From positions 1-32,512 of the forward strand of contig JAUIHB010000006.1 of assembly GCA_030432465.1 (NCBI GenBank): DNA of 32,512 bases, written 5' to 3'. The stretch's first letter is position 1. Each line of letters opens with the position of its first letter. The notes under the pieces are model-generated. The model did not search any database, was not told the DNA's origin, and saw only the letters and a program-made list of their open reading frames with translations. Source of the stretch: Gammaproteobacteria bacterium. Its GTDB lineage: Bacteria; Pseudomonadota; Gammaproteobacteria; Enterobacterales; Kangiellaceae. Positions 14,588 through 32,512 of this stretch are shown here, one piece after another. A program made the position numbers and the translations under genes.

Positions 14588-14635
14588 ACAATGATAAAGT
14601 TGTTACTTCACGATTAGGTGATAAGAGAGATTATT

Positions 14636-16409: not shown

Positions 16410-16449
16410 ATGAAATCAAACAATACAGTATTGTATTGTTTGATTTCAT
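16410..16449. repeat. Perfect 17-bp inverted repeat with 6-nt loop
   Basis: ATGAAATCAAACAATAC-AGTATT-GTATTGTTTGATTTCAT; arms exactly complementary. Confidence 0.95.
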
Positions 16450-16736: not shown

Positions 16737-17993
16737 ATGAGTAAGCAGGAAAAGGAAAGAAGAGTTGTTGTAACTGGAGTTGGTGCGTTTACTTCCATGG
16801 GAAATAATACCGCTGACATCTGGCAAAATATATTAGATTATAAAATTGGTTATAAGCGTTTTGAATTTTCAGATGAAACCTTAAATGCAAAATATTTTGG
16901 TTTTTTAGATTTTGATAAAAAACTCCTAAAAAAATTCTCTAAAAGAATTACAAAAATGTTACCTATGTATGCGAAGTACGGATTAATCGCATGCGATGAA
17001 GCTATTACTATGGCTTTTGGTGATTCTGATCTTGACTCTTTTGTCTCGCCTTTTGAGCGTGGAGTCGTCATTGGTACAGGTTGGGGAGGATTAGATTCCG
17101 CGAACGAAAATAACAATGATTATCAAAGTTCGGGAATCGCGACTTCTTTTGCAACTGTAGCTTCTATGTGCAACGTAGCGACTGCGGCCACATCAATGAA
17201 TTGGAATTTCCGAGGATATCAAAACAGTCCTATAGCTGCATGTGCGACAGGAAGTTTGGCGATTGGCGAAGCCTATGATGCAATTAAGTATGGTAAAGCC
17301 AAAGTAATGCTTGCTGGTGGTAGTGAATCTTTAAAAGATCAATTTAATGTTTGGTCAATTGATGTCATGCAGGCCTTAAGTAAAGAACAAGAAGACCCTA
17401 GGTTAGCTTGCTGTCCTTTTAGTAAGGGACGAAGTGGTTTTGTTTTATCAGAAGGTGCAGCAGTTGTTTGTTTAGAAGATTACGAATTCGCAAAGGCACG
17501 TGGTGCTAACATTTTGGCTGAAATAAAAGCTTACGCTAATTATTCCGATGCTTTTGATATGACTGCACCTGCAACTGATATGCAGGCAAGAATTAGAGTG
17601 ATTAGAGAGTTATGCAAGAACTCTGATATTTCAGAAAAAGAAATTGATTACATCAATTTACATGGCACTTCTACGCCATTAAATGATCTCAATGAAACGG
17701 TATCAGTCAAAGAAGCTTTGGGCGATTCTGCTTATAAAATTCCAATGTCGAGCACTAAGTCATACACTGGTCATTTAATTGGAGCAGCAGGTAGTCTAGA
17801 AACTATTTTTTGTATTAACGCGATGAACACAGGCGTATTGCCTGCAACTGTTCATTTAGATAACCCCGATCCTGAATGTGATTTAAATTACTTACCTAAT
17901 CAACACTTAGAAAACCAGACAATTAATAACGTTATGAATTTAAGTTTTGGTTTTGGCGGTGCTAATGCTGGCTTAATGATTAGTAAAACTTAG
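16737..17993 (+). CDS. FabF-like beta-ketoacyl-ACP synthase (KAS)
   Basis: ORF opens at GTG 16725, likely start ATG 16737; RRVVVTGVGAFTSMG, ACATGSLAIGEAYDAI (Cys), HGTSTPLND (His), KSYTGHLIGAAGS (Lys/His), NLSFGFGGANAG. Confidence 0.95.
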   Translation: MSKQEKERRVVVTGVGAFTSMGNNTADIWQNILDYKIGYKRFEFSDETLNAKYFGFLDFDKKLLKKFSKRITKMLPMYAKYGLIACDEAITMAFGDSDLDSFVSPFERGVVIGTGWGGLDSANENNNDYQSSGIATSFATVASMCNVATAATSMNWNFRGYQNSPIAACATGSLAIGEAYDAIKYGKAKVMLAGGSESLKDQFNVWSIDVMQALSKEQEDPRLACCPFSKGRSGFVLSEGAAVVCLEDYEFAKARGANILAEIKAYANYSDAFDMTAPATDMQARIRVIRELCKNSDISEKEIDYINLHGTSTPLNDLNETVSVKEALGDSAYKIPMSSTKSYTGHLIGAAGSLETIFCINAMNTGVLPATVHLDNPDPECDLNYLPNQHLENQTINNVMNLSFGFGGANAGLMISKT

Positions 17994-17996
17994 TCA

Positions 17997-18812
17997 GTGG
18001 TAAATAAGATGGAATTTACTTTTACGGCAAATGATATTGAAAACTGGGCCGAGTTTTCAAGCGACAGAAATCCAATTCATTTTGATAAAGATAAAGCTAG
18101 TTTACTGGGTGTGAACGATGTAGTAGCGCATGGAATGCTTGCGCTACTACCAGTTAAGCACCAGATAAGCTTGCATGTTGAAAAACAAAACTTAGATAGT
18201 TGGACTCAATTTAAAGCTACATTTAAGTCGCCTATTGTTAAGGATAGTGAAATGATCCTTAACACCAAACAAAAGCGCAAAAAATTGGGTTTTAGTTTAG
18301 ATTGCAAAAAAACGAACGTCACTACATTGATCGGTAATCTTTCATTTGTAGATAATGCTGACTGGTTGTCGAATAAAGAAAAAACAGAAATAGATCAGGA
18401 CGAAATTTCTAAACAATTTGATAATTTCCGGAAAAATTTTTGTAAAGAATATTCTTCTTGGATTTGGTTAGATGGTCTGGTTTTTAGTCACTTTATAAAA
18501 AACAAAATCGGTTATGTCATTAGCTTGGTTAGTGAACAGTATGAAGTGCCTGATGATGCATCTCGTTTAGAAGATTTGCCTGACTTTACCGTCGTCCAGA
18601 TTAGTCATCAATGTACTTACGATAAGTACCTAAGTGGCCATAATTATACATCCCAATCATTACCTGATATCGCTTATCAAATCGATAATATTTATATTAC
18701 TCAAGAAAAAGATAGTGCATTTGGTACATTAGAATTGGGTGTCATCATAAATCAACAACACCGTATGACAATTGAAATTGGTTTGCTTATTAAAGACAAC
18801 AAAAAAAATTAA
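17997..18812 (+). CDS. MaoC-like hot-dog dehydratase domain protein (probable double hot-dog, divergent C-terminal half)
   Basis: 271 aa; N-terminal FTANDIENWAEFSSDRNPIHFDKDKASLLGVNDVVAHGML (MaoC hydratase motif D-x4-H). GTG start, or ATG at 18009. Confidence 0.75.
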   Translation: MVNKMEFTFTANDIENWAEFSSDRNPIHFDKDKASLLGVNDVVAHGMLALLPVKHQISLHVEKQNLDSWTQFKATFKSPIVKDSEMILNTKQKRKKLGFSLDCKKTNVTTLIGNLSFVDNADWLSNKEKTEIDQDEISKQFDNFRKNFCKEYSSWIWLDGLVFSHFIKNKIGYVISLVSEQYEVPDDASRLEDLPDFTVVQISHQCTYDKYLSGHNYTSQSLPDIAYQIDNIYITQEKDSAFGTLELGVIINQQHRMTIEIGLLIKDNKKN

Positions 18813-18836
18813 TTATTTTTATATGAGAGGAAAATT

Positions 18837-19088
18837 ATGAATTACGAAAATATATTTGAAGCATCTGTTGAAATTATTTGTGATCTTAAAGATTTTGACG
18901 AAGATGAAGTAAAAGGAGATATGACATTTGAGCAATTAGATTTAGATAGTATGGATTTTATTGAGCTTCAAGTTGTATTTAGGAAAAAATTCGGGGTAAA
19001 CATGGAATCTGAAGTTTTTGCTGATGGCAAAGTGTCTACCATAGATGAAATGTGCCATTACGTTCTTGAATTACGCCAAGCAGCGTAA
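18837..19088 (+). CDS. Acyl carrier protein
   Basis: 83 aa acidic; LDLDSMDFIELQVVFRKKFGV with Ser for 4'-phosphopantetheine; SD-like AGAGGA upstream. Confidence 0.9.
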   Translation: MNYENIFEASVEIICDLKDFDEDEVKGDMTFEQLDLDSMDFIELQVVFRKKFGVNMESEVFADGKVSTIDEMCHYVLELRQAA

Positions 19089-19133
19089 TTTATCGCAATT
19101 TAAAAGAGATCTTCAAACCAAAGGGGTGTTTAC

Positions 19134-20027
19134 ATGTCCGCTGAACTGAATATTCTGCCTTTATCAGAAGAAAGAATTAATAAAGTAAAAAAATTGAGTA
19201 AAACCTCGCATGATAATGTGATGGATTTTAAAACGGTATTGCCATGGGATAATGGGGTCGATAAAAGTCTCTATCCTAAGCAGCCCGATCATTTGTGGAT
19301 TTATGGAACACCTTATTGTGACGCACTAACAGATGAGCAAAGATTAGAGTTGGCTTGGTTAGAAACTGCCAGAGATATTTCAATGTTTATTTGGCTAGAG
19401 CAAACCATACCGGTTCTGTATATGGGTTATATTACTCAATATGGGGATCAACTCAATAAAGAAACAACTGAATATCTAATGATATTTTCCAAAGAAGAAA
19501 TTGTGCACACTATGACATTTAAGCGATTTATGAAAATTGCAAATTTAGATATGTGGCATCCTCCTGTTGGTTTATATGATTTGTTGACAAAAACACTGCC
19601 TAAAATGTCACCGCCAGTTGGTATTTTATTTACTTTATTGATTGAGTGGGTTGCAGAGCTTGGTGCTATGCACACATCACAGAAAGATAATATTGAACCT
19701 ATGACTCGTCAATTATTCAAGGCTCATCATTTTGATGAAGCAAGACATATTGCTTTTGGTCGCTGGATATCTGAAGCATTTATAGAAAATGCGCCTGCAG
19801 AACAAGTTGCTCAAGTTAGAGCAATGTCAAAAGAAATAATTCCAAAGCTTATCAATATGTTTACTTACAATCCTGAAATTCCACGTCATACAAGTTTTGA
19901 TTTTCCTATTGCATCAGATGATCAGGAAAAAATTAATGAAATTTGGAACTCTGAAAATAATCAAAGAATCAACAGTGAACGATTTACTGAGTTTTATTCA
20001 TGGATAGACAAGCTTGGTTTGCGATGA
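19134..20027 (+). CDS. AurF-like diiron oxygenase (ferritin-like fold)
   Basis: 297 aa; LETARDISMFIWLEQ, FSKEEIVHTMTFKRF, LIEWVAELGAMH, AHHFDEARHIAFGRW give E, ExxH, E, H-x3-E-x2-H carboxylate-bridged diiron ligand spacing like AurF. Confidence 0.75.
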   Translation: MSAELNILPLSEERINKVKKLSKTSHDNVMDFKTVLPWDNGVDKSLYPKQPDHLWIYGTPYCDALTDEQRLELAWLETARDISMFIWLEQTIPVLYMGYITQYGDQLNKETTEYLMIFSKEEIVHTMTFKRFMKIANLDMWHPPVGLYDLLTKTLPKMSPPVGILFTLLIEWVAELGAMHTSQKDNIEPMTRQLFKAHHFDEARHIAFGRWISEAFIENAPAEQVAQVRAMSKEIIPKLINMFTYNPEIPRHTSFDFPIASDDQEKINEIWNSENNQRINSERFTEFYSWIDKLGLR

Positions 20028-21553
20028 GTACAGAGATTAAAAATTGGGATGCTATTTTTGTCGGTGCTGGAATTACTAGTCTGGCGTGTGCTGCTCTATT
20101 AGCTAAAAAAAATCCAGGTATAAAATTATTACTTGTGGATAAGCATATTGTAGCTGGTGGCTATGCGAGTGTTTTTTCTCGACCTAAAGCGAATGCCACT
20201 TTTGATTGTAGTTTGCATAAGTTAAGTGGCATGCAGCACCAAGGAAATTTGCAGCGTATATTTGAATATTTAGGGTTGGATAATGCGCTAGAGCTTGTTT
20301 ATCCAGAAGATTATTTTTGCAGTTTTTTTGACGACCATTCATTACCATTACCTAACGATGCAAATGGTGTTGAAAAGTTGTTGTGTAAGCAATTTCCTGC
20401 AGAATCGAAAGGCATTAAAACATTTTTTGAACAAGTCAGAACTTTTGGTCGAAATGGCTATTATCAATTTCAAATGCAGGAAGGTAGTTTCGAGCCTGAT
20501 ATTGCGCAATTAAGATACGCTCATAAAAATTTAAAAAATATAACCGTTGAACAAGGTTTAGATGAATTATTTGATGACCAGAAATTAAAAGAAATTCTGG
20601 CAGCTCCTGGCATCTATGTTGGTGGTTATCCAGAGGATTTAGGTTATCTGTATTATTTGCATGTTGTTTATGCAACTTTAAATAAAGGTAATGCTTATGT
20701 GAAAGGTGCATCACAAAATTTATCAAATACATTAGCTAAACAAATTGAAGATGCTGGTGGAAAAATTCAATTAGGAACTAAAGTTGAAGAAATTTTGGTA
20801 GATGACAATTTATGTGTCAAAGGTATACAGACTAAACGTGGTAATTTTTATAGTGATAGAGTGTATGTCAATGTATCACCACATTATGCGATAGAGCATT
20901 TGTTTGATGAAAAAATTGATTTTACGGATATTAAAGAGAAACTCCGAGCGCTAAAGCCTGCCAGATCAACTACAACAGTTTATTTGACTACTGATTGTTC
21001 GCCTCAGGAATTAGGAGTTATCCATAGTGAATCGATGATTTTTAGTTCTCAATTGTGTAACGCAGCAGTACAACGCAAAGCTGCGGAATTAAATGATTTT
21101 GATGAGCAGTTAAGTGAAGAAGCTTTTTGGAAGCACTCACCAATGGAAGTTACAAATTATTATAAACTTGATTCGGCGGGTGGTTATGTTATTTGTTTAA
21201 ATGTTCTAGATTCGATCAAACATTGGCCTATGCGTCGAACGCAACCTTATCGTGAAAAAAAGCAACGAGCAGCTGAAATAATGACGCAACGTTTAATTAA
21301 TCATGTACCTCAATTGGAAGGACGTATTAATTATAGTGAAGTGTCGTCTCCTCATACTTACGTCAAATTTACAAATAATACTGATGGTTCTGGTTATGGT
21401 GCAATGGTAAGTACGGATCTAAGTGGTCATCTTTTTCACCGTAAATTTCCTGTTAAAGGGGTAGAATTTGTTAGTGCCTGGGTTGCAGGCCCAAGTTATG
21501 AAGCAGCATTTGGATATGCTGAAATGAAAGCGAAAAAATGGAGAGCAGCATGA
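20024..21553 (+). CDS. FAD-dependent oxidoreductase, CrtI/CrtISO/RetSat-like (paralogue 1)
   Basis: ORF opens at 20000 but ATGA overlap at 20024 with upstream gene suggests that start; AIFVGAGITSLACAALLAKKN, VDKHIVAGGYASVFSR, C-terminal SSPHTYVKFTNNTDGSGYG. Confidence 0.85.
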   Translation: MSTEIKNWDAIFVGAGITSLACAALLAKKNPGIKLLLVDKHIVAGGYASVFSRPKANATFDCSLHKLSGMQHQGNLQRIFEYLGLDNALELVYPEDYFCSFFDDHSLPLPNDANGVEKLLCKQFPAESKGIKTFFEQVRTFGRNGYYQFQMQEGSFEPDIAQLRYAHKNLKNITVEQGLDELFDDQKLKEILAAPGIYVGGYPEDLGYLYYLHVVYATLNKGNAYVKGASQNLSNTLAKQIEDAGGKIQLGTKVEEILVDDNLCVKGIQTKRGNFYSDRVYVNVSPHYAIEHLFDEKIDFTDIKEKLRALKPARSTTTVYLTTDCSPQELGVIHSESMIFSSQLCNAAVQRKAAELNDFDEQLSEEAFWKHSPMEVTNYYKLDSAGGYVICLNVLDSIKHWPMRRTQPYREKKQRAAEIMTQRLINHVPQLEGRINYSEVSSPHTYVKFTNNTDGSGYGAMVSTDLSGHLFHRKFPVKGVEFVSAWVAGPSYEAAFGYAEMKAKKWRAA

Positions 21554-22389
21554 GTCAGGCTGCTCTTTCTGTAAGCTGGCGTGCGAAAATATTTTCTATT
21601 TTTTTCATGCGTATTATGTTTTCCAGAGTGCAAGGTTGGAAAAATGATATTCCCACACGAGCAAAAAAATTTGACCGTATTGCTTTAGATGGCAGTAGTT
21701 TAGAAGGTGCAATTCATGAGTCACAAAATTTAAAGCCTTTAGGTGTAGTGATTCTTTGTCACCCTTTTGTTAAGTATGGTATGCACTACTTTTTTAAAAA
21801 TGAATTAGATATTGAGCTAACAAAGCTTGGATACCATGTTGTATCGTTTAATTTTAAAGGCTTTGGCCGCAGTAATATTAAAGGACACGCCTATTTTAAT
21901 GATGTTTTATCTATTGGGCAGTCATTACGTGAACAATATCCAAATCTACCAATTCATTTAATAGGATGTTCGTTCGGTGGATTTCACTTATCACATGCAT
22001 TAGCTCAGAACACTTCACTGTTTACATCTGCTGTATTGGATAGTGTTCCCTGCTCAGTTAATGTTTATTTTAAAAAAGGCATTCTTTCGCACGCTATGGC
22101 TTGGTTGAGTAGTAGTAAACTTGCTCCGATTACGGGCACACAGCCAATAAAAGACTCACTTAAAAAAGTTAATAATTTCCCCTTACTTTTCTTACATGGC
22201 GCATCTGATAATTATTTACCAGAAGCAGATGTTGAGGAACTTAGAGCTTTATGTGCATCAATTCAGTTTAAAAAATTTGAAGAATGTAAGCATCTAGAAA
22301 TTATCAAAAAATATAGAAGTGACTATCTTCAACTAGTTTCACAGTTTTTTAACGATAGTCTACAAAACCAAAGAATAACAGGTAAGTAA
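21550..22389 (+). CDS. Alpha/beta hydrolase
   Basis: ORF opens at 21538; ATGA overlap start at 21550. HLIGCSFGGFHLSHA (Ser elbow), FLHGASDNYLP (Asp), ECKHLEII (His). Confidence 0.8.
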   Translation: MSQAALSVSWRAKIFSIFFMRIMFSRVQGWKNDIPTRAKKFDRIALDGSSLEGAIHESQNLKPLGVVILCHPFVKYGMHYFFKNELDIELTKLGYHVVSFNFKGFGRSNIKGHAYFNDVLSIGQSLREQYPNLPIHLIGCSFGGFHLSHALAQNTSLFTSAVLDSVPCSVNVYFKKGILSHAMAWLSSSKLAPITGTQPIKDSLKKVNNFPLLFLHGASDNYLPEADVEELRALCASIQFKKFEECKHLEIIKKYRSDYLQLVSQFFNDSLQNQRITGK

Positions 22390-22390
22390 A

Positions 22391-23146
22391 ATGAATAACT
22401 CAGAAGTACAAAATAAACCATGGATTCTTGTCACTGGCGGAAGCCGCGGTATTGGTAAAGCTATTGTCAAAATGTTAGCAAGCCATCAATGGCAGGTGAT
22501 TTTTACTTATAATTCATCGAGTGATGCAGCTTTGAGTTTAGAGTCAGAAGTTGAACGTTCAGGTGGAGCCGCTAAAGGTTTTAAATGTGACGGAAGTGAT
22601 TTTTCTCAAGTTGAAAAATTATGCCGTGATTTGCAACAGTATTACGGTAACCCAGCTGGCTTGATTAATAATATGGGGATTACAGCGGATGAGCTGATTT
22701 ATAATTTAGACATCGAAACTTACCAAAAAGTTATTAATACTAATTTAAACTCTTCCGTCTATTTTAGTAAATGTTTAGTCCCCATGATGAGTGAAAATGG
22801 ATATGGAAAAATCATTCAAATGTCATCAGTTACAGCCTTTAAAGGTAACAAGGGACAAATTGGTTATGCTGCAACTAAAGCTGCAATGTTAGGCATTACT
22901 AAATCTTTATCATTAGAGGTGGCAAGATTTAATATTACAGTAAATGCTGTTGCACCGGGTTTTATTGCGACAGAAATGGTTGATCAAATTCCTGAAAAAA
23001 CTCGTAAAAATATAAAAAAAGAAATTCCGCTAAAGCGTATGGGAGAAGTTGATGAAGTCGCGAGTTTAGTTAGATTCTTAGTTTCAAAAGAAGCAGACTA
23101 TATCACCGGACAAACCTTTGTCATCGATGGCGGACTGACAGTCTAA
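22391..23146 (+). CDS. FabG-like 3-oxoacyl-ACP reductase (SDR)
   Basis: 251 aa; VTGGSRGIGKAI, NNMGIT, IQMSSVTAFKGNKGQIGYAATKAA (Ser, YxxxK), TVNAVAPGFIATEM. Confidence 0.95.
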   Translation: MNNSEVQNKPWILVTGGSRGIGKAIVKMLASHQWQVIFTYNSSSDAALSLESEVERSGGAAKGFKCDGSDFSQVEKLCRDLQQYYGNPAGLINNMGITADELIYNLDIETYQKVINTNLNSSVYFSKCLVPMMSENGYGKIIQMSSVTAFKGNKGQIGYAATKAAMLGITKSLSLEVARFNITVNAVAPGFIATEMVDQIPEKTRKNIKKEIPLKRMGEVDEVASLVRFLVSKEADYITGQTFVIDGGLTV

Positions 23147-23174
23147 TTAAAAATTATAACTTTAAGGCGTTGTT

Positions 23175-24683
23175 GTGAAATCAGAATACGATGTGATATT
23201 TATTGGTGCGGGTTTAGGCGGCTTAACCGCAGCCAGTCTAATTGCACAAAAAGGAAAAAAGGTTCTTGTTATTGATAAACATAACATAGCTGGTGGCTAT
23301 GCAACCAATTTTAAACGTAAAGATTTTGAATTTGATGTTTCGCTTCATTCTTTTGATGGTGTGGTTAAAGGTGGTAATTCCTATAAAATAATCGAAGCCA
23401 GTGGTGTTGCTGATAAAATTGAATTTTTAGGTCATGATACACTTTACCATTATCAATGTGGTGATATTGATATTAAAGTTAAGCATCAAGATATTGAAGG
23501 ATACAAAAAACAATTAGTCCATTATTTTCCAGAAGAAGAAGGTAATATTGAAAGATTATTTTCTGAGGCCGACAAAAACTATAAAGACATGAGTGGTTTT
23601 TTATATTCCACTAAACGATTTTTTCTAAGAATTATGGCAACTCCCCTCTTTTATCGACGAATATTAAAGTATGAACATTATACTGTTGATGATTATTTTT
23701 CTCGTTATACAAAAAATGAAAAGCTTAAAGCCGCCCTTTCAGCTCAATGGAGTTATTATGGATTACCAGCAAAAGATTTAGCCTTTGGTTATTTTTCTTA
23801 TCCATTTATTGATTATCTAAGATTTGGTGGTTATTCAATTAAAGGTGGATCTCAGAAGTTGTCTAATGCTTTGGTTGACACTATCGTTGAACATGGCGGT
23901 GAGGTTCAACTAGCTTCTCCCGTGACAAAAATAGTCACCAATGAAAAGAATAAAATTATTGGTATTGAGTCAAAGAAAACAGGTTTTGTTAGAGCAAAAA
24001 AAATTGTTTCAAACATTAGTCCATATGCAGTTGTTTCACTAACTGGGGATGAACAGTTTGATCAAAAATTTAAACAAAATCTCAAACAACTAAAACCTTC
24101 TATTTCGGGTTTTCAAGTATATTTAGGACTTAATTGTACACTTGATAAACTTGGAGTTAAAAAAGATGAATATATTCGTTTTTTCTCTCCAACATTAAGC
24201 CAAAGAGAGCAATTTGATAATTTAAAAAATGGCAATGTGTTTGAAGACAAAACAGGATGGTCAATTAACTACTTTTCAAATGTTGATGATTCTTTAGTTT
24301 CTCCGGGTAAGTCCTCTCTTGGTTTATTTACTTTGGTAGGCACCTCTAATTGGCATAGCCTCAGTAAAATGGAATATAGAGAAAAGAAACAGGAACTGAC
24401 TCAAGTGTTAATCGATAAAGCATCTAAAGTGTTACCGGGCTTGGTTGATCATATTGAAGTCTGTGAAGCAGGAACGCCTAGAACTATGACAAAGTTTACC
24501 AATAATCCTGGAGGAGCTATTTATGGCTTTGAACAAAACATTAAACAATCGGGATTATTCCGTCGTTTCCCACAAAAATACCCATTAAAGGGATTGTATC
24601 AAGTTGGTGCTTGGACTTTTCCCGGAGCTGGGTTTATTGGCACTATGCTTTCTGCAAAAATACTAGTCGACCGATATTTTTAA
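23175..24683 (+). CDS. FAD-dependent oxidoreductase, CrtI/CrtISO/RetSat-like (paralogue 2)
   Basis: 502 aa from GTG; VIFIGAGLGGLTAASLIAQKG, IDKHNIAGGYATNFKR, TPRTMTKFTNNPGGAIYGFEQ. Confidence 0.88.
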   Translation: MKSEYDVIFIGAGLGGLTAASLIAQKGKKVLVIDKHNIAGGYATNFKRKDFEFDVSLHSFDGVVKGGNSYKIIEASGVADKIEFLGHDTLYHYQCGDIDIKVKHQDIEGYKKQLVHYFPEEEGNIERLFSEADKNYKDMSGFLYSTKRFFLRIMATPLFYRRILKYEHYTVDDYFSRYTKNEKLKAALSAQWSYYGLPAKDLAFGYFSYPFIDYLRFGGYSIKGGSQKLSNALVDTIVEHGGEVQLASPVTKIVTNEKNKIIGIESKKTGFVRAKKIVSNISPYAVVSLTGDEQFDQKFKQNLKQLKPSISGFQVYLGLNCTLDKLGVKKDEYIRFFSPTLSQREQFDNLKNGNVFEDKTGWSINYFSNVDDSLVSPGKSSLGLFTLVGTSNWHSLSKMEYREKKQELTQVLIDKASKVLPGLVDHIEVCEAGTPRTMTKFTNNPGGAIYGFEQNIKQSGLFRRFPQKYPLKGLYQVGAWTFPGAGFIGTMLSAKILVDRYF

Positions 24684-24739
24684 AGAATATGTAATTAATT
24701 ATTTAATAGAAAACCGTTTAATTAGAGAAGAAAACTGTT

Positions 24740-25063
24740 ATGACATACGTAGTAACTGACAATTGCATTCAGTGTAAACATACTGAATGTGTGGATATTT
24801 GTCCTGCTGATGCTTTTCGTGAAGGAAAGAATTTTATCGTTATAGATCCTGATGAGTGTGTAGATTGCGGATTGTGTGTTCCTGAATGTCCAGAGGAAGC
24901 TATTTTTGCAGAAAGTGAGTTGACTACGGATGATGAACATTTTCTTGAACTCAACGCAGAACTTGCAAAGGAATGGCCATTAATTTTGGAAAAATTACCA
25001 CCTATTGAAGGATATCAATCGTGGAGTGGTAAACCTAACAAGTTGGCACATTTAGAAAGGTAG
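24740..25063 (+). CDS. FdxA-type 7Fe/8Fe ferredoxin
   Basis: 107 aa; TYVVTDNCIQCKHTECVDICPADAFREGKNFIVIDPDECVDCGLCVPECPEEAI with two Cys cluster motifs. Confidence 0.93.
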   Translation: MTYVVTDNCIQCKHTECVDICPADAFREGKNFIVIDPDECVDCGLCVPECPEEAIFAESELTTDDEHFLELNAELAKEWPLILEKLPPIEGYQSWSGKPNKLAHLER

Positions 25064-25119
25064 TAAAATTTTAACAATTTTACCGAAATTAATATTAGAT
25101 AATAGTAAAGGAATTAGCG

Positions 25120-26760
25120 ATGAGTAAAAATAATTTAAAAAGAACTCATGTATTAGAAGATGATAAATTTGATGTGATTGTTGTTGGTGCAGGTATCGGA
25201 GGATTAACTGCGGCAGGAACTTTAGCTAAAAGAGGAAAAAAAGTTTTAGTTTTAGACATGCATTATGAATTGGGTGGATGTGCCACAGTATTTCATAGAC
25301 ATGGTAAAGCTTATGAATTTGACGTTGGTCTGCATTATATTGGTGATTGTGGAGAAAAAGGTTTAATTCCACGTATTTTAAAAGGCGCTGGGATTGAATA
25401 TCATGAAATTAATTTTCTTGAACAGGATCCTGATGGTTTTGATACATTATGTTTTCCTGAGTTTACTTTCCCTATTCCTAGAGGCGTTGAAAAATTTAAA
25501 CAAAGTTTAATTGAGGAATTTCCTGATGAAATAAAGGGAATAAACCGATATTTTAAATTTTTAAATCAGGTCTGGGATTTTATGGGTATTCACTCTAACC
25601 CACTTTCAGCACTTTGGATTTTGCCACGTTCAATTTTATTGGCTCGTTACGCGACAGCAACTGTTGAAGAATTCCTTGATACTTGTACTAATGATAAAAA
25701 ATTGCGTGCCATATTGACAGGACAATTAGGTGTTTATCATCAACCGCCTAGTAGGGCATCGATGGCCGGTCACGCTGGTGTAACCAATCACTTTTTGCAA
25801 GGTTCATTCTATCCATCTGGTGGTGGACAAGTTTTCTCTGATAAGCTTGGCGCTGCGATTGAAAAGAATGGCGGAAAAATATTATTAAGATCAAAAGTAA
25901 CTAAGATACTAGTTGAGAATAAACGTGTAATCGGTGTTGAATTTGAAAATAAAAAACTAGGCAGTAAAAAAGTTTATGCTGATTATGTTATTTCAAATGC
26001 AGACCTTAAAAAGACACTGCTTGACCTGGTTGGGGAAGAACATTTATTAAGTAAAACAATTCAGCGAACAAAAAATTATGAAATGTCACCTGCAATGGGA
26101 ATTGTTTATTTAGGTGTTGATCTTGATATGAAGGCATTGGGACATAAGAATACTAATTACCGTATTTATCCAAGCTATGATTATGAAGTTGCTTACAATG
26201 AGATATTTGAACAACGTTTTCCTGAAGCTCCTCACGTATTTATTGGTAATGCAACATTAAAAGATCCAGATAATCCTAATATTGCACCAGAAGGAATTTA
26301 TAACCTACAGTTAATGTCGGTTGTACCCAATTCACCTGAAGCTTGGGGGTTAACGCAAGCGGAAGTAGATGATGGTAGTTATCGAAAAAATAAAAAGTAT
26401 CAAGAAAAAAAGCAGTGGTATGCCGAACAGTTAATCAAAGCTACTGAATCTGTTATTCCCGGGATCAGTAAGCATATTGTTTATCAAGATGTATCAACGC
26501 CTTTTTCTGTCACACGTTTTATTGGCGCAACAGGTGGAACATCTTATGGTATTGCATTTACGCCAGAGCAGTTCCTACATAATAGACCAAGTGAAAAAAC
26601 AGAAATAAAAGGCTTAATATTATGTGGTGCTTCTACTCGTACAGGACATGGAATTTTTGGTGCAATGACCGGAGGAGTAGAAGCAGCAGCAGCAGTATCA
26701 GGTAAAAAGGTACGCTATGAAATATTAGATAAGGGAGAAAGAGCTGTTGCCGAAGCTTAA
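25120..26760 (+). CDS. FAD-dependent oxidoreductase, CrtI/RetSat-like (paralogue 3)
   Basis: 546 aa; VIVVGAGIGGLTAAGTLAKRG, LDMHYELGGCATVFHR, YEFDVGLHYIGD, STPFSVTRFIGATGGTSYG. Confidence 0.88.
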   Translation: MSKNNLKRTHVLEDDKFDVIVVGAGIGGLTAAGTLAKRGKKVLVLDMHYELGGCATVFHRHGKAYEFDVGLHYIGDCGEKGLIPRILKGAGIEYHEINFLEQDPDGFDTLCFPEFTFPIPRGVEKFKQSLIEEFPDEIKGINRYFKFLNQVWDFMGIHSNPLSALWILPRSILLARYATATVEEFLDTCTNDKKLRAILTGQLGVYHQPPSRASMAGHAGVTNHFLQGSFYPSGGGQVFSDKLGAAIEKNGGKILLRSKVTKILVENKRVIGVEFENKKLGSKKVYADYVISNADLKKTLLDLVGEEHLLSKTIQRTKNYEMSPAMGIVYLGVDLDMKALGHKNTNYRIYPSYDYEVAYNEIFEQRFPEAPHVFIGNATLKDPDNPNIAPEGIYNLQLMSVVPNSPEAWGLTQAEVDDGSYRKNKKYQEKKQWYAEQLIKATESVIPGISKHIVYQDVSTPFSVTRFIGATGGTSYGIAFTPEQFLHNRPSEKTEIKGLILCGASTRTGHGIFGAMTGGVEAAAAVSGKKVRYEILDKGERAVAEA

Positions 26761-26819
26761 TATTCAATAAAGTAATTGTTTTATACTATTAAGTGTAATC
26801 TAAATTATTGGGAACCAGC

Positions 26820-27869
26820 ATGAGAAAACTAAATGTTAATCAGTTTTTCAGTTTGAATTTTTTATTATTTGTAGTTTTTTACGCTAATAGTGTCATTGCT
26901 TTTACTGAAGAAAAAGTCATTATAGAAAAAGCAGTGAGAAAAAATCAGAGTATTGATATTCATGTTTCTGGTAAGTTGTCACGAAAAACAACCATGCGAA
27001 TGGCTTTTAACATTGATGGATTAGTTGAGTCTGTTTTAGTTAATCCGGGGGATAGATTTGTAAAAAACCAGGTTCTTGCTAGATTAAATGAGAGTGAAAT
27101 AAAAGCGCAGGTTATACATGCTAAATCAGCCTATGATTCTGCATTCAATGATTGGCAAAGAGCAAAAAACTTATTTGATAAATCATTAATACCACAATCA
27201 CAGTTGCAACATCAAAAAGCGTTGTTGGATGGTGCGGGCTCTACTTTAGAAACTGTTCAATTTAATCAAGACATGGCTACTATTAAAGCGACAGTGAATG
27301 GAGAGGTTTTAGAAAAATATATTGAAGAAAACGAGCTGGTTACTGCTAAACAGACTGCATTTCTTGTATCAGTCAATGCTCATGGTTGGGTGGTTAGTGT
27401 GGAAATACCCGATCACCAAGTCGTAAGATTAAACTTAGGTGATAAGGCAGAGGTTCGTTTTAGTGCGTATCCGGATAAAAGCTACTCAGGTAAAGTAAGT
27501 GAAATATCAGCCAAATCAAATAATCACTCAGGTTTATTTTCTGTTGAAGTGATGTTAGATAGTTTCGAAGATAATTTCCGTTCTGGTTATTTAGCTAGTG
27601 TAGATATATTGCCTGAATCAGAAGAGAAATTAACATTTATCAACTTGGATTCGGTTATTACGGTTAAAGATAACCAAGCCATGTTTTTTGCTTATGATGA
27701 ATTAACAAAAAAAATAAAAAAGTATTTTACCAAAATTCAGTTTATAAGTGAAAACTCCATTGTTTCTAATGAAAATTTGAGTGAAGTTTCTTACGTTGTC
27801 AGGAATGCTTCTATAGATTTAAAAGATGGGGAATTAGTTCAAGCATTTCCTATTGCTATGGCGAAGTAG
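26820..27869 (+). CDS. RND efflux periplasmic adaptor subunit (HlyD/MFP family)
   Basis: ORF opens at TTG 26808, likely ATG 26820; signal peptide, VNPGDRFVKNQVLARLN lipoyl-like, coiled-coil hairpin AKNLFDKSLIPQSQLQHQKALL. Confidence 0.9.
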   Translation: MRKLNVNQFFSLNFLLFVVFYANSVIAFTEEKVIIEKAVRKNQSIDIHVSGKLSRKTTMRMAFNIDGLVESVLVNPGDRFVKNQVLARLNESEIKAQVIHAKSAYDSAFNDWQRAKNLFDKSLIPQSQLQHQKALLDGAGSTLETVQFNQDMATIKATVNGEVLEKYIEENELVTAKQTAFLVSVNAHGWVVSVEIPDHQVVRLNLGDKAEVRFSAYPDKSYSGKVSEISAKSNNHSGLFSVEVMLDSFEDNFRSGYLASVDILPESEEKLTFINLDSVITVKDNQAMFFAYDELTKKIKKYFTKIQFISENSIVSNENLSEVSYVVRNASIDLKDGELVQAFPIAMAK

Positions 27870-27896
27870 TATCTAATGATAACGAATGAGTAAATT

Positions 27897-30800
27897 ATGA
27901 AAATTGTTAATAGCGCACTGGGGAATTATCGCTTTACTGTTGTAATAATGCTTACTATTGTTTTGTTGGGCTTATTATCATTTTTAACTATGCCCCGTTC
28001 TGAAGATCCCCAACTTTCGTTTTCAATAGATTATTTAGTAGTGATTCATCCGGGGGCTTCGGTTCTTGATATGGAACAGTTGATAGTCGATCCGATTGAA
28101 GATGCGATTAATTCGTTAGAAGATCTGAAGGAAATAAAAACGGATATTCGAGACGGTATGGCAAAGTTTAGAATTGAATTTGAACATAATACTGATCCAG
28201 ATAAAAAGTATGATGATATTGTAAATGCTGTTGCAGGTATTCGTAATCAGCTACCTTCAAATTTAGCAAAGTTAGAAGTCAAAAAATTATCACCCACAGA
28301 TGTTAATATATTTCAACTAGCACTCACCTCGGAAACAGCATCTTATCGTGATTTGAGGTTATATGCAGAAAGATTAGAAAATAGTCTTGAACGACTTAAT
28401 GGAGTTAAAGGAGCTGATATCTGGGCAATTCCACAGCAAATGGTTCAAGTGACTTTAGATTTTGAAAAAATGAAGCATTACAACCTTTCAATGACTGAAA
28501 GTTATAAAGCGTTACAAGGAGAAGCAGCTAATATACCGGGTGGTCATGTTAATACTCTGAATAGACGTTTTAATATTCGTACAAGTGGAAAATATCAAAA
28601 TCTTAAGGCAATAGAAAACACTTTAATCAGCTCACCTAATGGAAGACCTATTTACGTCAAAGATGTTGCGAGTGTTGAATTTGTTGATAGTGAAGCGAAT
28701 TATTTAGCACGATTTAATGGTGAAAGAAGTGTTTTTGTTACCGCCATGCAAAACGAAAATGCCAATATATATAATGTTATTAAAGCAATTAATGCAGAAG
28801 TCGATAAATTTAAAAAACAACTTCCCGAGACTATTTCTGCTAAGGTAGTACTTGATAAATCCGAAAGTGTTACCAGGCGATTAGGTGATTTTTTTAGTAA
28901 TTTAGTTTTTGGTTTGTGTTTTGTTGGCTTGGTTGTTTTTCTTTTTTTAGGCTTCAGAAATATGATTATCGTTATTACGGTTATTCCTATTTCTATTTTA
29001 ATTGCATTTGGATTGTTAGATCAGTCTGGTTTTGGCATCCAGCAAATGTCTATTGTTGGTTTAATTATTGCCTTAGGTCTTTTGGTTGATAATGCTATTG
29101 TTGTATGTGAAAACATTGCGCAAAAAATGCGTCAGGGTCATTCTATTTATACCAGCGTTACCGAAGGAACTTCTTCCGTTGGGTGGGCAATAACCAGTGG
29201 TACTTTGACAACACTATTATCCTTTTTACCTATTCTGGCAATGCAAACTAGCTCAGGTGCATTTATTCGTTCTTTACCTTTGGTGGTTATTTATTCCTTA
29301 ATTGCTTCTTTAGCTGTTGCATTATTTATAACGCCATTACTTGCGCTAAAATTATTTAATGTGGGTTCTAAAAATAAACAAAAAAATCAGCAAAGAGTAG
29401 GGTTTTCTGGAAAAGCAGTTATGTTATTGCAAAAAATTTCTCAAGGGCCTTATCAAAGATTTTTGTGTGGCGTTATTAATAAACCTAAAACGACAATTGT
29501 TCTGACACTAATTTTGTTTGTTTTGAGTTTAACTTTATTTAAGAGTGTAGGCGTTAGTTTATTTCCTAAAGCTGAAAATAATCAAGTTATGGTTAACCTT
29601 ACTTTAAATGAGAATGCAAGTTTAGCTGAAACTCAACGTATAACGGAACAAGTTGAATCGGTATTAGCAAAGTTTAAAGGAATAAAGAGCTTTACTTCAA
29701 ATATCGGTAGAGGTAATCCCAGAGTTTATTACTCTGAAACTCCTCCACCAGAAAAAGCTAACCGAGCACAATTATTTGTCCAGTTAAATGCTGATAATGC
29801 AGGTGAATATTGGGCATTAGTGAAAGGTTTGCGCGAGCAATTAGAAACAATAGTTGGTGCTGAAATTAATGTAAAAGCTTTTCAGCAAGGTAAGCCAATA
29901 GAAGCTCCTGTTGTTTTAAGAATTTACTCTGATAACTTTGATATTCTTCGTCAAGTATCTAGTGAAGTTGAATCATTAATGAGAAAAAATGAAATTTTTC
30001 ATTTAATTGAAAATCCTATAGGAAAAAATAAACTTGATTTTCAACTTAGCATTGATAAAGAACGGGCAGCCCTTTTAGACATACCTATTGGTAAAATTGA
30101 TGCAGCTGTTAACATGAGTCTTACTGGAGTTCAAGTTGGAAAATTTCGTGATGAATATGGAGATGATTTTCCTATTACTGTCAAACTTTCTAAACCGAGT
30201 GGCGCTGTTGTTTCTGATCTTGAACAAATAATGGTCGAAAATAATTCTGGAATATTATATCCGCTAAGCCATGTTGCAAGACTTGAACTTATTTCAACAC
30301 CTGCGTATTTACAGCACTTTAATAATCAACGTTCAGCAAAAGTGACAGCCGATGTTATTGAAGGAGAAAATGTTGAAAAAGCTACATTACAACTTCAAGA
30401 AGATTTAAAAAGTATCCAATTGCCTGATGGGGTGACTTTAGAGTTGGGCGGAGAAAGAAAATCAAGAGGAGAAGCTTTTAGAGGCTTTATAAAATCTACA
30501 GTTGTTGCATTATTTGGTATTTTTACAGTATTGGTTTTTCAATTTCGATCATTTACACAACCATTTATTGTGTTTGTTTCTATACCGTTTGCAGTGTCAG
30601 GATCTATCTTAGCTCTGTATTTAACTGGTTATTCATTTTCGTTTATGGCCTTTTTAGGTGTGGCAGGGCTCGTAGGTATTGTTGTGAACAACGCTATCAT
30701 ATTAATTGATACTGCGAATAATTTGCAGCTTGAAGGAATGAGCCAATATGATGCTTGTATTGAAGCAAGTAAAAGCCGACTCACTCCTATATTTTTAACA

Positions 30801-31007
30801 ACATTAACAACTATCGTTAGTTTATTACCATTAGCTTTTCAAAAGAGTTTAACTTGGTCACCACTGGCATTGACCATAATTGGGGGGTTAGCAGTTTCCA
30901 CACTGATCAGTTTAGTGTTGGTTCCGCTGCTGTATACTTTATTTACCACAGCTATAGCACCGTCATCATTAGAGATGGAAAATCAACTTCAGGATATTAA
31001 AGCATGA
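27897..31007 (+). CDS. RND (AcrB/HAE1 family) efflux permease
   Basis: 1036 aa; MPRSEDPQL, PGASVLDMEQLIVDPIEDAI, GLLVDNAIVVCENI, GLVGIVVNNAIILIDTANN, repeated 12-TM architecture. Confidence 0.95.
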   Translation: MKIVNSALGNYRFTVVIMLTIVLLGLLSFLTMPRSEDPQLSFSIDYLVVIHPGASVLDMEQLIVDPIEDAINSLEDLKEIKTDIRDGMAKFRIEFEHNTDPDKKYDDIVNAVAGIRNQLPSNLAKLEVKKLSPTDVNIFQLALTSETASYRDLRLYAERLENSLERLNGVKGADIWAIPQQMVQVTLDFEKMKHYNLSMTESYKALQGEAANIPGGHVNTLNRRFNIRTSGKYQNLKAIENTLISSPNGRPIYVKDVASVEFVDSEANYLARFNGERSVFVTAMQNENANIYNVIKAINAEVDKFKKQLPETISAKVVLDKSESVTRRLGDFFSNLVFGLCFVGLVVFLFLGFRNMIIVITVIPISILIAFGLLDQSGFGIQQMSIVGLIIALGLLVDNAIVVCENIAQKMRQGHSIYTSVTEGTSSVGWAITSGTLTTLLSFLPILAMQTSSGAFIRSLPLVVIYSLIASLAVALFITPLLALKLFNVGSKNKQKNQQRVGFSGKAVMLLQKISQGPYQRFLCGVINKPKTTIVLTLILFVLSLTLFKSVGVSLFPKAENNQVMVNLTLNENASLAETQRITEQVESVLAKFKGIKSFTSNIGRGNPRVYYSETPPPEKANRAQLFVQLNADNAGEYWALVKGLREQLETIVGAEINVKAFQQGKPIEAPVVLRIYSDNFDILRQVSSEVESLMRKNEIFHLIENPIGKNKLDFQLSIDKERAALLDIPIGKIDAAVNMSLTGVQVGKFRDEYGDDFPITVKLSKPSGAVVSDLEQIMVENNSGILYPLSHVARLELISTPAYLQHFNNQRSAKVTADVIEGENVEKATLQLQEDLKSIQLPDGVTLELGGERKSRGEAFRGFIKSTVVALFGIFTVLVFQFRSFTQPFIVFVSIPFAVSGSILALYLTGYSFSFMAFLGVAGLVGIVVNNAIILIDTANNLQLEGMSQYDACIEASKSRLTPIFLTTLTTIVSLLPLAFQKSLTWSPLALTIIGGLAVSTLISLVLVPLLYTLFTTAIAPSSLEMENQLQDIKA

Positions 31008-32359
31008 GCAATGTGAGTGCAGAACCAACACAACGAGAACAGTTGGAACAAGTCAATATATTATTCTCCGGTGACTCTGGCGATGGTATACAAACAATCG
31101 GTAGCAAACTTGCTTATTCGTCATCGGTGGCTGGTAATGAAATTAGTTGTTTTCCGGATTTTCCAGCTGAGATAAGAGCACCTGCGGGAACTATTGCTGG
31201 GGTGTCTGGTTTTAAACTGTGTTTTGCTAGTCAACCGATAAGTGCCCCAGGGGATAACCTTAATGCTTTAGTGGTGATGAATCCTGCCGCACTAAAGCAT
31301 AGCCTGAATGAATTATCAGAGAACGGGCTACTGCTAGTTAACAGCGATAGTTTTAAAGATAAAGATTGGATAAAAGCTGGTTATCAAGAGGATCCTTTAG
31401 CATCGGGAATTTTATCAAAATATAGAGTGATAAAAGTACCAATGACAACGTTAGTTTTAAAATCTTTGGAAGAAACCGATGTTCCAAGGAAACAAGCTCT
31501 AACTTGCAAAAATATGTTTGCTTTGGGTATTGTTTGTTGGCTTTATGAAAGAAATATTAGTGTTATCAGTAATTGGTTAAATGAAAAATTTAAGCGTGAT
31601 GAAGCATTAGCTAAAGCGACAAAACTGGCATTATTAGCTGGTTATCACTACGCTGACACTGTTGAGTTATTTAGTGCTGGCTTTCAAGTTCCTAAAGCGG
31701 CATTAGTGGAAGGTAAGTATCGGCATATTACGGGTAATGAAGCTTTAGCACTTGGAGCAGTGGTCGCTTCTATTAAATCGCAGAGAGAATTATTTTTTGC
31801 TAGTTACCCAATTACACCTTCATCTGATGTACTACATCAATTGTCTCAGTATCATGAAATTGGTGTTAAAACATTTCAATCAGAAGATGAAATTGCAGCG
31901 ATGTCTAGTGCTATTGGTGCTGCTTTTTCCGGGCGTTTAGCATTAACCAGTACAAGTGGACCTGGGTTAGATTTAAAACAGGAAGCTATTGGTTTAGCCA
32001 TGATAGCTGAGTTGCCTGTCGTTATTTTTAATATTCAGCGAGCGGGTCCTTCGACTGGTATGCCAACTAAAACAGAGCAATCTGATTTGTTGGCTTCAGT
32101 GTTCGGCCGTCATGGTGATTGTACTTTACCCGTATTAGCGGCTGCGACACCCAGCGATTGTTTTTACATGGCAATACAAGCATTTGAAATTGCAACCAAG
32201 TTTATGACTCCCGTTATTTTATTATCTGATGGTTATTTGGCCAATAGCGCAGAATCTTGGCTTATACCTTCAGCTTCAGAAATTCCAGATTTCAATTTGG
32301 ATAATTCAGAAGACTATTCTAAGTCCAAGCTATTTGAACGAAATCCAATCGCCCTATAA
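31004..32359 (+). CDS. 2-oxoacid:ferredoxin oxidoreductase, fused gamma/alpha subunit (KorA-like), 3' end replaced at a junction
   Basis: LFSGDSGDGIQTIGSKLAYSS gamma-domain start; alpha domain GNEALALGAV, SYPITPSSDVLHQLS, TSTSGPGLDLKQEAIGLA, QRAGPSTGMPTKTEQSD, PVILLSDGYLANSAE. The conserved C-terminal part expected for KorA is missing after ~32300. ATGA overlap with the RND gene. Confidence 0.88.
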   Translation: MSNVSAEPTQREQLEQVNILFSGDSGDGIQTIGSKLAYSSSVAGNEISCFPDFPAEIRAPAGTIAGVSGFKLCFASQPISAPGDNLNALVVMNPAALKHSLNELSENGLLLVNSDSFKDKDWIKAGYQEDPLASGILSKYRVIKVPMTTLVLKSLEETDVPRKQALTCKNMFALGIVCWLYERNISVISNWLNEKFKRDEALAKATKLALLAGYHYADTVELFSAGFQVPKAALVEGKYRHITGNEALALGAVVASIKSQRELFFASYPITPSSDVLHQLSQYHEIGVKTFQSEDEIAAMSSAIGAAFSGRLALTSTSGPGLDLKQEAIGLAMIAELPVVIFNIQRAGPSTGMPTKTEQSDLLASVFGRHGDCTLPVLAAATPSDCFYMAIQAFEIATKFMTPVILLSDGYLANSAESWLIPSASEIPDFNLDNSEDYSKSKLFERNPIAL

Positions 32360-32512
32360 AGCCATTGTCGCTTTTTCTGGCAAAAAGAAACACTACCAAA
32401 CAGGGCAGGATGTTACCGAGGAGAAAATGAATCGTTTCCCCGATGGCAACAACGACATCCCCAAGCAATTCAGTAAGCAGCCCTACCGATTCCTCATCGT
32501 TGCCAACAAATA
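32331..32512 (+). pseudogene. hsdR: Fragment of type I restriction enzyme HsdR (helicase domain), 5' truncated at junction and 3' cut by window
   Basis: Frame YLNEIQSPYKAIVAFSGKKKHYQTGQDVTEEKMNRFPDGNNDIPKQFSKQPYRFLIVANK matches the HsdR region SPYKAIVAFSG...VTE.KMN.F...YR.LIVANKFQTGFD. No start codon or upstream HsdR coding sequence is present. Confidence 0.8.

What the first reader, a model, noticed from the sequence alone, without database searches (positions are those of the whole stretch)
16737..32340. Candidate undescribed ACP-dependent, ferredoxin-linked acyl/polyene biosynthesis and export cluster
Seen: 13 co-directional, closely spaced genes: KAS, MaoC-like dehydratase, ACP, AurF-like diiron oxygenase, FAD oxidoreductase 1, alpha/beta hydrolase, FabG, FAD oxidoreductase 2, ferredoxin, FAD oxidoreductase 3, RND adaptor, RND pump, KorA-like subunit. 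Known: KAS + FabG + dehydratase + ACP is a dedicated type II FAS/PKS-like elongation set; CrtI/RetSat-family enzymes desaturate, isomerise or saturate conjugated double bonds. Inference: the product is a modified (poly)unsaturated acyl chain, lipid or hydrocarbon, hydrolysed or transferred by the alpha/beta hydrolase and exported by the RND pump. The combination does not match the aryl-polyene, oleABCD or pfa PUFA layouts I know. Several CrtI-like proteins with FAS genes resemble in outline the candidate ladderane loci of anammox bacteria, but no radical SAM gene is visible here.
Basis: partly seen in the sequence, partly recalled or inferred. Interest (0 to 1): 0.85.

Follow-up and report, generated by a model that had tools for sequence, protein, structure and literature searches.

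The report
Quorum-linked unsaturated acyl biosynthesis gene cluster
A block of about sixteen bacterial genes, ten of them found in the same order in distantly related Pseudomonas species, looks like a dedicated assembly line for an unknown oxidised, unsaturated fatty-acid-like compound, and no described pathway that we found has this combination of enzymes.

Summary
The 13 genes are real and closely packed (gaps of 59 bp or less). A ten-gene core, KAS-MaoC-ACP-AurF-CrtI1-ABH-FabG-CrtI2-ferredoxin-CrtI3 (16737-26760), is collinear at 35-73% protein identity in eight of nine Pseudomonas-genus loci. Shorter forms without CrtI2/CrtI3 occur in the ninth, in Stenotrophomonas and in a relative of its family. 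All nine Pseudomonas loci carry luxR and luxI beside the core and a small membrane protein after it; eight have a conserved lux-box-like dyad. The RND pump and KorA are absent there. In this genome the locus continues on another contig (C281): end of KorA, KorB, TetR, and that same membrane protein. The whole block is inserted between genes that neighbour each other in same-genus relatives, so RND and KorAB belong to the locus in this organism. Catalytic residues checked in AurF, KAS, MaoC and ABH are invariant; AurF lacks the CylC halogenase glutamine. The own genome shows no phytoene synthase. Best reading: a specialised-metabolite pathway for an oxygenated, unsaturated acyl product. Product and reaction order are inferred. 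The AurF-CrtI pair recurs in a second, different type II cluster.

The parts
16410..16449 (.). perfect 18-bp inverted repeat with 4-nt loop about 290 bp upstream of KAS; possible regulator operator
   Evidence: no second copy found near the TetR gene on C281, so its function is unproven
16737..17993 (+). KAS (FabF-like ketosynthase; ORF opens at GTG 16725, ATG at 16737)
   Evidence: C169, H309, K341, H346 (numbering from the 16737 start) invariant in 14 sequences
17997..18812 (+). MaoC-like (R)-hydroxyacyl dehydratase; only the N-terminal half matches the MaoC model
   Evidence: D23/H28 (D-x4-H) invariant in 12 sequences
18837..19088 (+). acyl carrier protein with DSMD motif
19134..20027 (+). 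AurF-family ferritin-like diiron oxygenase
   Evidence: E89, E122, H125, E171, H198, E202, H205 invariant in 16 sequences; AlphaFold model pLDDT 90, best PDB match CmlI 5hyh, AurF also found
20024..21553 (+). CrtI1, CrtI/CrtISO-like flavoprotein, always next to AurF
   Evidence: forms one clade with the CrtI of the second cluster type
21538..22389 (+). alpha/beta hydrolase, likely thioesterase
   Evidence: S145, D224, H252 invariant in 10 sequences; absent in L021 and L065
22391..23146 (+). FabG-like 3-ketoacyl-ACP reductase
   Evidence: over the cut-off of NF009466
23175..24683 (+). CrtI2, CrtI-like flavoprotein; optional
   Evidence: missing together with CrtI3 in L021, L064, L065
24740..25063 (+). 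FdxA-type ferredoxin
   Evidence: 146 bits, over cut-off 135 of NF045490
25120..26760 (+). CrtI3, CrtI-like flavoprotein; optional
   Evidence: missing together with CrtI2 in L021, L064, L065
26808..27869 (+). HlyD-type adaptor of an RND pump (lineage-specific part)
   Evidence: not in any related locus
27897..31007 (+). RND (AcrB-family) pump (lineage-specific part)
   Evidence: only a 22% hit on the opposite strand in L021
31004..32359 (+). KorA-like 2-oxoacid:ferredoxin oxidoreductase subunit, C-terminus cut by the contig end
   Evidence: C-terminal 158 aa and KorB lie at the start of contig C281
32350..32512 (.). chimeric contig tail, not part of the locus
   Evidence: KorA reading frame breaks here; GC 46% against 35%; another frame is open across the tail

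Best explanation
It is a horizontally spread specialised-metabolite operon that builds, oxidises and releases an unsaturated acyl chain on its own carrier protein. KAS, FabG and MaoC elongate and dehydrate an acyl-ACP without an enoyl reductase in the cluster, which would leave trans double bonds (inferred from known type II chemistry). The diiron AurF-type oxygenase, fed by the cluster ferredoxin (reduced here probably by the cluster KorAB; in other hosts by general reductases), oxygenates the chain, and its constant partner CrtI1 introduces, moves or isomerises double bonds. CrtI2 and CrtI3 are an optional pair giving further desaturation or isomerisation. The alpha/beta hydrolase frees the acyl group from ACP. 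In this organism an RND pump was added for export and a TetR gene lies beside the locus; in Pseudomonas LuxI/LuxR probably switch the operon on by quorum sensing. Shown: gene content, conservation, intact active-site residues, insertion, luxI/luxR linkage with a shared dyad. Inferred: substrate, product, order of steps, export.
For: Collinear ten-gene core in eight other genomes and shorter forms in three more. Active-site residues invariant in KAS, MaoC, AurF and ABH. FdxA-type ferredoxin present in every window-type locus found, while the distant cluster type has a flavodoxin: both have a dedicated electron carrier in the AurF cluster. Second KorAB copy in this genome, about 30-40% identical to the ordinary one on C230, placed inside the insertion. 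luxR and luxI adjacent in all nine Pseudomonas loci, dyad such as CTGTACCTAGATACAG upstream of KAS in eight, with a degenerate aligned site in the ninth, L020. No phytoene synthase in the own genome or in eight of ten other cluster-bearing genomes tested, so the CrtI proteins need not serve carotenoids. In L065 the core lies beside NRPS genes and a cyclic-peptide exporter, and ABH is absent there, consistent with acyl transfer to a peptide in place of hydrolysis.
Against: No product is known. A single KAS without chain-length factor, with no loading enzyme or malonyl transferase in the cluster, does not fix how many rounds it runs, so 'polyene' is not demanded by the genes. The complete AurF 3-His/4-carboxylate set is described as largely unique to N-oxygenases among ferritin-like diiron oxygenases (PMC12101540), which would suggest a nitrogen substrate that nothing in the core supplies. 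ABH is also missing in Stenotrophomonas (L021), where no NRPS was seen in the flanks. The RND pump is not conserved.
Confidence: 0.65

Rival explanations
1. AurF acts as an N-oxygenase: the pathway makes a nitrogen-containing acyl product (hydroxylamine, nitro, azoxy or similar) from an amine made elsewhere in the cell, and the acyl genes only supply a tail.
For: All seven AurF iron ligands and the second-shell carboxylates are present (ligand set and its link to N-oxygenases from PMC12101540); the nearest solved fold is the N-oxygenase CmlI. In L065 the core sits next to NRPS genes.
Against: No aminotransferase, adenylation domain or amino-acid enzyme in the window core or inside the Pseudomonas cores. 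Sequence identity to characterised AurF-fold enzymes is only about 14-16% in the structural matches.
Confidence: 0.2
2. A membrane-lipid or hydrocarbon pathway (PUFA, polyunsaturated hydrocarbon or ladderane-like): the CrtI proteins desaturate acyl chains that end in lipids.
For: FASII genes with several CrtI-like proteins resemble in outline the anammox and Desulfotalea loci (PMC2649909); the two anammox CrtI-like proteins tested did not replace CrtI in lycopene formation (PMC4790861).
Against: No radical SAM or SAM methyltransferase gene; an O2-using diiron oxygenase is present in place of anaerobic chemistry; no acyltransferase to glycerolipids in the core; about 2% presence in Pseudomonas and luxI/luxR linkage point to a specialised metabolite.
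Confidence: 0.12
3. The dedicated acyl-ACP feeds the adjacent LuxI, so that the cluster makes the acyl chain of an unusual acyl-homoserine lactone signal.
For: LuxI enzymes use acyl-ACP (general knowledge), and luxI lies beside the core in all nine Pseudomonas loci.
Against: The own genome and the Stenotrophomonas, Microbulbifer and Cellvibrio carriers have no LuxI-family gene detected; a lux-box-like dyad upstream of KAS fits the ordinary role of regulation.
Confidence: 0.04
4. Carotenoid tailoring: the three CrtI proteins act on carotenoids and the FAS-like genes make an acyl decoration.
For: Best NCBIfam matches of the CrtI proteins are carotenoid isomerase/desaturase models.
Against: All are far below those models' cut-offs; no phytoene synthase in the own genome (83% complete) or in eight of ten other carriers tested.
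Confidence: 0.02

Closest known systems
Aryl polyene (APE) clusters
   Same: Type II KAS, ketoreductase, dehydratase, ACP, thioesterase and an RND-family transporter, co-directional and operon-like (PMC8253772).
   Different: APE has an aromatic-acid synthetase, several ketosynthases including a chain-length factor, two ACPs and methyl-, acyl- and glycosyltransferases, and no AurF, CrtI or ferredoxin in its gene table; the window cluster has one KAS, no ligase, three CrtI and AurF.
Anammox / Desulfotalea FASII clusters proposed for ladderane or polyunsaturated hydrocarbon synthesis
   Same: FASII-type genes together with CrtI-like flavoproteins (PMC2649909, PMC4790861).
   Different: Those have radical SAM and SAM methyltransferase genes and occur in anaerobes; none here, and AurF needs O2.
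CylC/NocO diiron halogenases of cyanobacteria
   Same: AurF-fold diiron enzymes; CylC chlorinates an acyl chain at an unactivated carbon (PMC12101540, PMC8406957).
   Different: Halogenases have QExxH; here EExxH in all 16 sequences, so the halogenase signature is not met.
Photobacterium/Microbulbifer/Cellvibrio type II cluster with AurF+CrtI (uncharacterised; L008, L009, L023, L043)
   Same: An AurF next to a CrtI1-clade protein, FabG and KAS in all four; ACP and a small DUF3995-type membrane protein in the two read in full, L008 and L009.
   Different: L008 and L009 have a benzoate-CoA-ligase-like enzyme, two KASIII, a chain-length-factor-like protein, FabZ, SCP2, a metallo-beta-lactamase-fold protein and flavodoxin in place of ferredoxin; AurF only 22-25% and CrtI 31% identical.
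Solanimycin (sol) cluster of Dickeya solani
   Same: Quorum-sensing-controlled product with a conjugated polyene acyl chain in a gammaproteobacterium (PMC9765074, PMC10204066).
   Different: Modular trans-AT PKS/NRPS with P450; no AurF, CrtI or ferredoxin named in the paper's gene table.

Membership tests
Type II FAS/PKS-like acyl biosynthetic cluster | Discrete catalytically intact KAS, ketoreductase, dehydratase and ACP | tested here: met
Aryl polyene cluster | Aryl-acid ligase and KAS/chain-length-factor pair | tested here: not met
   One KAS with full Cys-His-His triad, no second KAS and no AMP-binding protein among the 13 ORFs
Ladderane-type cluster (anammox) | Radical SAM enzymes beside FASII and CrtI genes | tested here: not met
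   No radical SAM family in any ORF of the core or in C281 genes 1-2799
AurF-type diiron oxygenase fold | 3 His / 4 carboxylate ligand set | tested here: met
   E89, E122, H125, E171, H198, E202, H205 invariant; fold match to CmlI/AurF
CylC-type diiron halogenase | QExxH motif in place of D/E-ExxH | tested here: not met
   E121-E122-x-x-H125 invariant (criterion from PMC12101540)
N-oxygenase (AurF/CmlI function) | Oxidation of an amine substrate | not testable with these tools
   ligand set compatible, substrate unknown
Carotenoid pathway | Phytoene synthase present in the genome | tested here: not met
   PF00494 absent from G000 and eight of ten other carriers; G000 is only 83% complete
Quorum-sensing-regulated cluster | luxI/luxR linkage and lux-box-like operator upstream of the operon | tested here: inconclusive
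   Met in all nine Pseudomonas loci for luxI/luxR and in eight for a scored dyad; not in the window's own genome
2-oxoacid:ferredoxin oxidoreductase (KorAB) | POR gamma + POR_N alpha with matching TPP-binding beta subunit | tested here: met
   KorA in window, C-terminus and KorB on contig C281; the joining of the contigs rests on reading frame and synteny

The most novel reading that the evidence does not exclude
AurF and CrtI1 are a reusable two-enzyme module, a diiron oxygenase plus a CrtI-type flavoenzyme with its own ferredoxin or flavodoxin and a small membrane protein, that performs a so far undescribed oxidative rearrangement or cyclisation on ACP-bound unsaturated chains and has been plugged into at least three kinds of assembly line: this short FAS-like one, an aryl-ligase/KASIII/chain-length-factor one, and one beside an NRPS.
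Probability: 0.3. Interest if true: 0.78.

Novelty: new variant of a known kind. Interest (0 to 1): 0.6.

Why it matters
It gives natural-product chemists a small, well-bounded cluster family with ready hosts (Pseudomonas sp. TH31 and Au-Pse12, Stenotrophomonas pennii) and in Pseudomonas a predictable switch (acyl-homoserine lactone), so an unknown product class and two enzyme activities (AurF on a carrier-bound acyl chain; CrtI-like enzymes outside carotenoid metabolism) become directly testable. CrtI-like enzymes acting on acyl-ACP are also a step proposed for ladderane lipids, so a tractable aerobic system could inform that open question.

Tried and rejected
AurF searches in 40 relatives, 369 class genomes and the 40 held family genomes found no orthologue besides the own one; they gave only the distant type (G049) and weak unrelated AurF proteins (L010-L013). 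Plasmid searches with CrtI1 and AurF gave only the distant Photobacterium type as a cluster match. Literature leads considered and dropped: thailandenes, lahorenoic acids (only a 'candidate cluster' mentioned, no gene list), cinnamoyl-lipid type II PKS, solanimycin, ladderane. Rfam found nothing in the window. The palindrome has no clear second copy near the TetR gene. The small membrane protein's confident model (pLDDT 91) has no significant PDB match. PADLOC gave nothing for three neighbouring proteins.
Full report
What is there. The window is contig C355 (positions 1-32,512) of a 3.77-Mb, 83%-complete draft genome in 388 contigs. Left of them are ordinary genes: glmS, a DsbA-like gene, dprA, def, fmt, rsmB, trkA, trkH.

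The core is conserved. A scan of about 85,000 species genomes with a CrtI1 alignment found close relatives in Pseudomonas sp. TH31 (L020), Stenotrophomonas pennii (L021) and Pseudomonas sp. Au-Pse12 (L022), 63-65% identical in CrtI1. Whole-genome searches with AurF then found it in 8 of 399 genomes of the genus of Au-Pse12 (that genome included) and in 2 of 247 of the Stenotrophomonas family, with no hits of intermediate strength at the thresholds used. In eight of the nine Pseudomonas-genus loci the order KAS-MaoC-ACP-AurF-CrtI1-ABH-FabG-CrtI2-Fdx-CrtI3 is identical. Identities to the window run from about 35-45% (ACP, MaoC) through about 50% (ABH) to about 59-73% (KAS, AurF, CrtI1-3, FabG, Fdx). 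One Pseudomonas-genus locus (L064), Stenotrophomonas (L021) and a further relative (L065) lack CrtI2 and CrtI3 together; L021 and L065 also lack ABH. CrtI1, CrtI2 and CrtI3 are three separate, well-supported clades.

What lies around it elsewhere. Every Pseudomonas-genus locus has a LuxR-type gene and a LuxI-type gene beside KAS and a small membrane protein after the last core gene. Between luxI and KAS a 20-bp dyad of lux-box form is found in eight of the nine; the ninth (L020) has only a degenerate aligned site. The window's own genome and the Stenotrophomonas, Microbulbifer and Cellvibrio carriers have no LuxI-family gene detected. None of the related loci has the window's RND pump or KorA beside the core.

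The locus runs past the window. The membrane protein, absent from the window, was found in the same genome on contig C281. C281 begins with the C-terminal 158 residues of a KorA, then KorB, a TetR-like gene (weak Pfam match) on the opposite strand, and the membrane protein. The window's KorA lacks that C-terminal part, and the last ~160 bp of the window are unrelated and GC-richer. In same-genus genomes the trkH region left of the cluster is followed within a few kilobases by the TonB-receptor, sensor, regulator and rpiA genes that lie to the right on C281 (seen in L096, L099, L100, and in L098 without the 14618-type protein; L097 has other genes there). So C355 and C281 are very probably adjacent and the cluster is an insertion. 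The inserted part has 35% GC on both contigs, against 39-40% in the flanks. RND and KorAB are therefore bracketed by conserved cluster genes and share their composition: they belong to the locus in this organism. The ordinary KorAB is elsewhere (C230).

How it probably works. KAS has the Cys-His-His triad and lysine, MaoC the D-x4-H dyad, ABH a Ser-Asp-His set, AurF all seven diiron ligands and the CmlI/AurF fold. These invariances argue for working enzymes. From established type II chemistry, KAS + FabG + MaoC without a cluster enoyl reductase would leave double bonds; this is inference. The ferredoxin, present in every window-type locus, and a flavodoxin in the distant cluster type, fit electron supply to AurF; KorAB in this genome fits reduction of that ferredoxin; both are inference. 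AurF and CrtI1 are neighbours in all window-type loci and in the distant cluster type of Photobacterium, G049, Microbulbifer and Cellvibrio, and their CrtI proteins form one clade, so they are the likeliest functional pair. CrtI2/CrtI3, missing together, are likely optional tailoring. In L065 the short core lies beside an NRPS piece, a phosphopantetheinyl transferase, a thioesterase, an FMN dehydrogenase, an aminotransferase, a 4HPPD-like fragment and a cyclic-peptide exporter, and ABH is missing; this suggests the core can hand its acyl chain to a peptide synthetase. The 4HPPD-like frame is short, so a hydroxyphenylglycine pathway there is only a guess.

Compared with what is known. It is a type II acyl assembly line by test, but not an aryl-polyene cluster (no ligase, no KAS pair), not a ladderane-type cluster (no radical SAM), not a carotenoid pathway (no phytoene synthase found in the own genome), and its AurF does not have the diiron-halogenase QExxH. 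N-oxygenation by AurF remains the main rival because its ligand set is typical of N-oxygenases. No paper found describes this gene combination; the library lacks most subscription journals, so a published product cannot be excluded.

Verdict. A real, bounded, mobile biosynthetic cluster family with unknown product; a new variant of a known kind. Interest lies in the AurF-CrtI pair on carrier-bound chains and in the ready-made quorum-sensing handle in Pseudomonas.

Noticed in passing
window 32350-32512: Contig end is chimeric: the KorA frame breaks and an unrelated open frame follows (it reads like a type I restriction HsdR helicase segment to me, from memory; Pfam gave no hit to a 52-aa piece).
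   Followed up: partly
window 16410-16449: Perfect 18-bp inverted repeat with a 4-nt loop in the AT-rich region upstream of KAS; no regulator gene next to it in the window.
   Followed up: partly
L020:6298-6735 and the luxI-KAS intergenic regions of L022, L058-L064: Conserved lux-box-like dyad (CTGTACCTAGATACAGTT in several) and in several loci a second one nearer luxI; the signal molecule is unknown.
   Followed up: partly
L065 (G1208:C43): Short core next to an NRPS end with terminal condensation domain, PPTase, thioesterase, sulfotransferase-SCP2 fusion, cyclic-peptide ABC exporter and possible hydroxyphenylglycine-type genes.
   Followed up: partly
L008 (Photobacterium sp. GJ3 plasmid pGJ3-1), L009, L023, L043: A second uncharacterised type II cluster with AurF+CrtI (in L008 and L009 with benzoate-CoA-ligase-like protein, two KASIII, SCP2, flavodoxin and a DUF3995-type membrane protein).
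   Followed up: partly
L082:2365-2799 and homologues after the core in L020-L022, L058-L065: Small helical membrane protein family (no Pfam hit for the window-type members; the distant type is DUF3995), model pLDDT 91, no significant PDB match; function unknown.
   Followed up: yes
L020:15111-16685: CrtI3 of Pseudomonas sp. TH31 ends about 20 residues early (in-frame stop within the aligned region).
   Followed up: no
window 14618-15949: Protein of 443 aa with no Pfam match at E<=0.001, found after trkH in several same-genus genomes; marks the left edge of the insertion site.
   Followed up: partly
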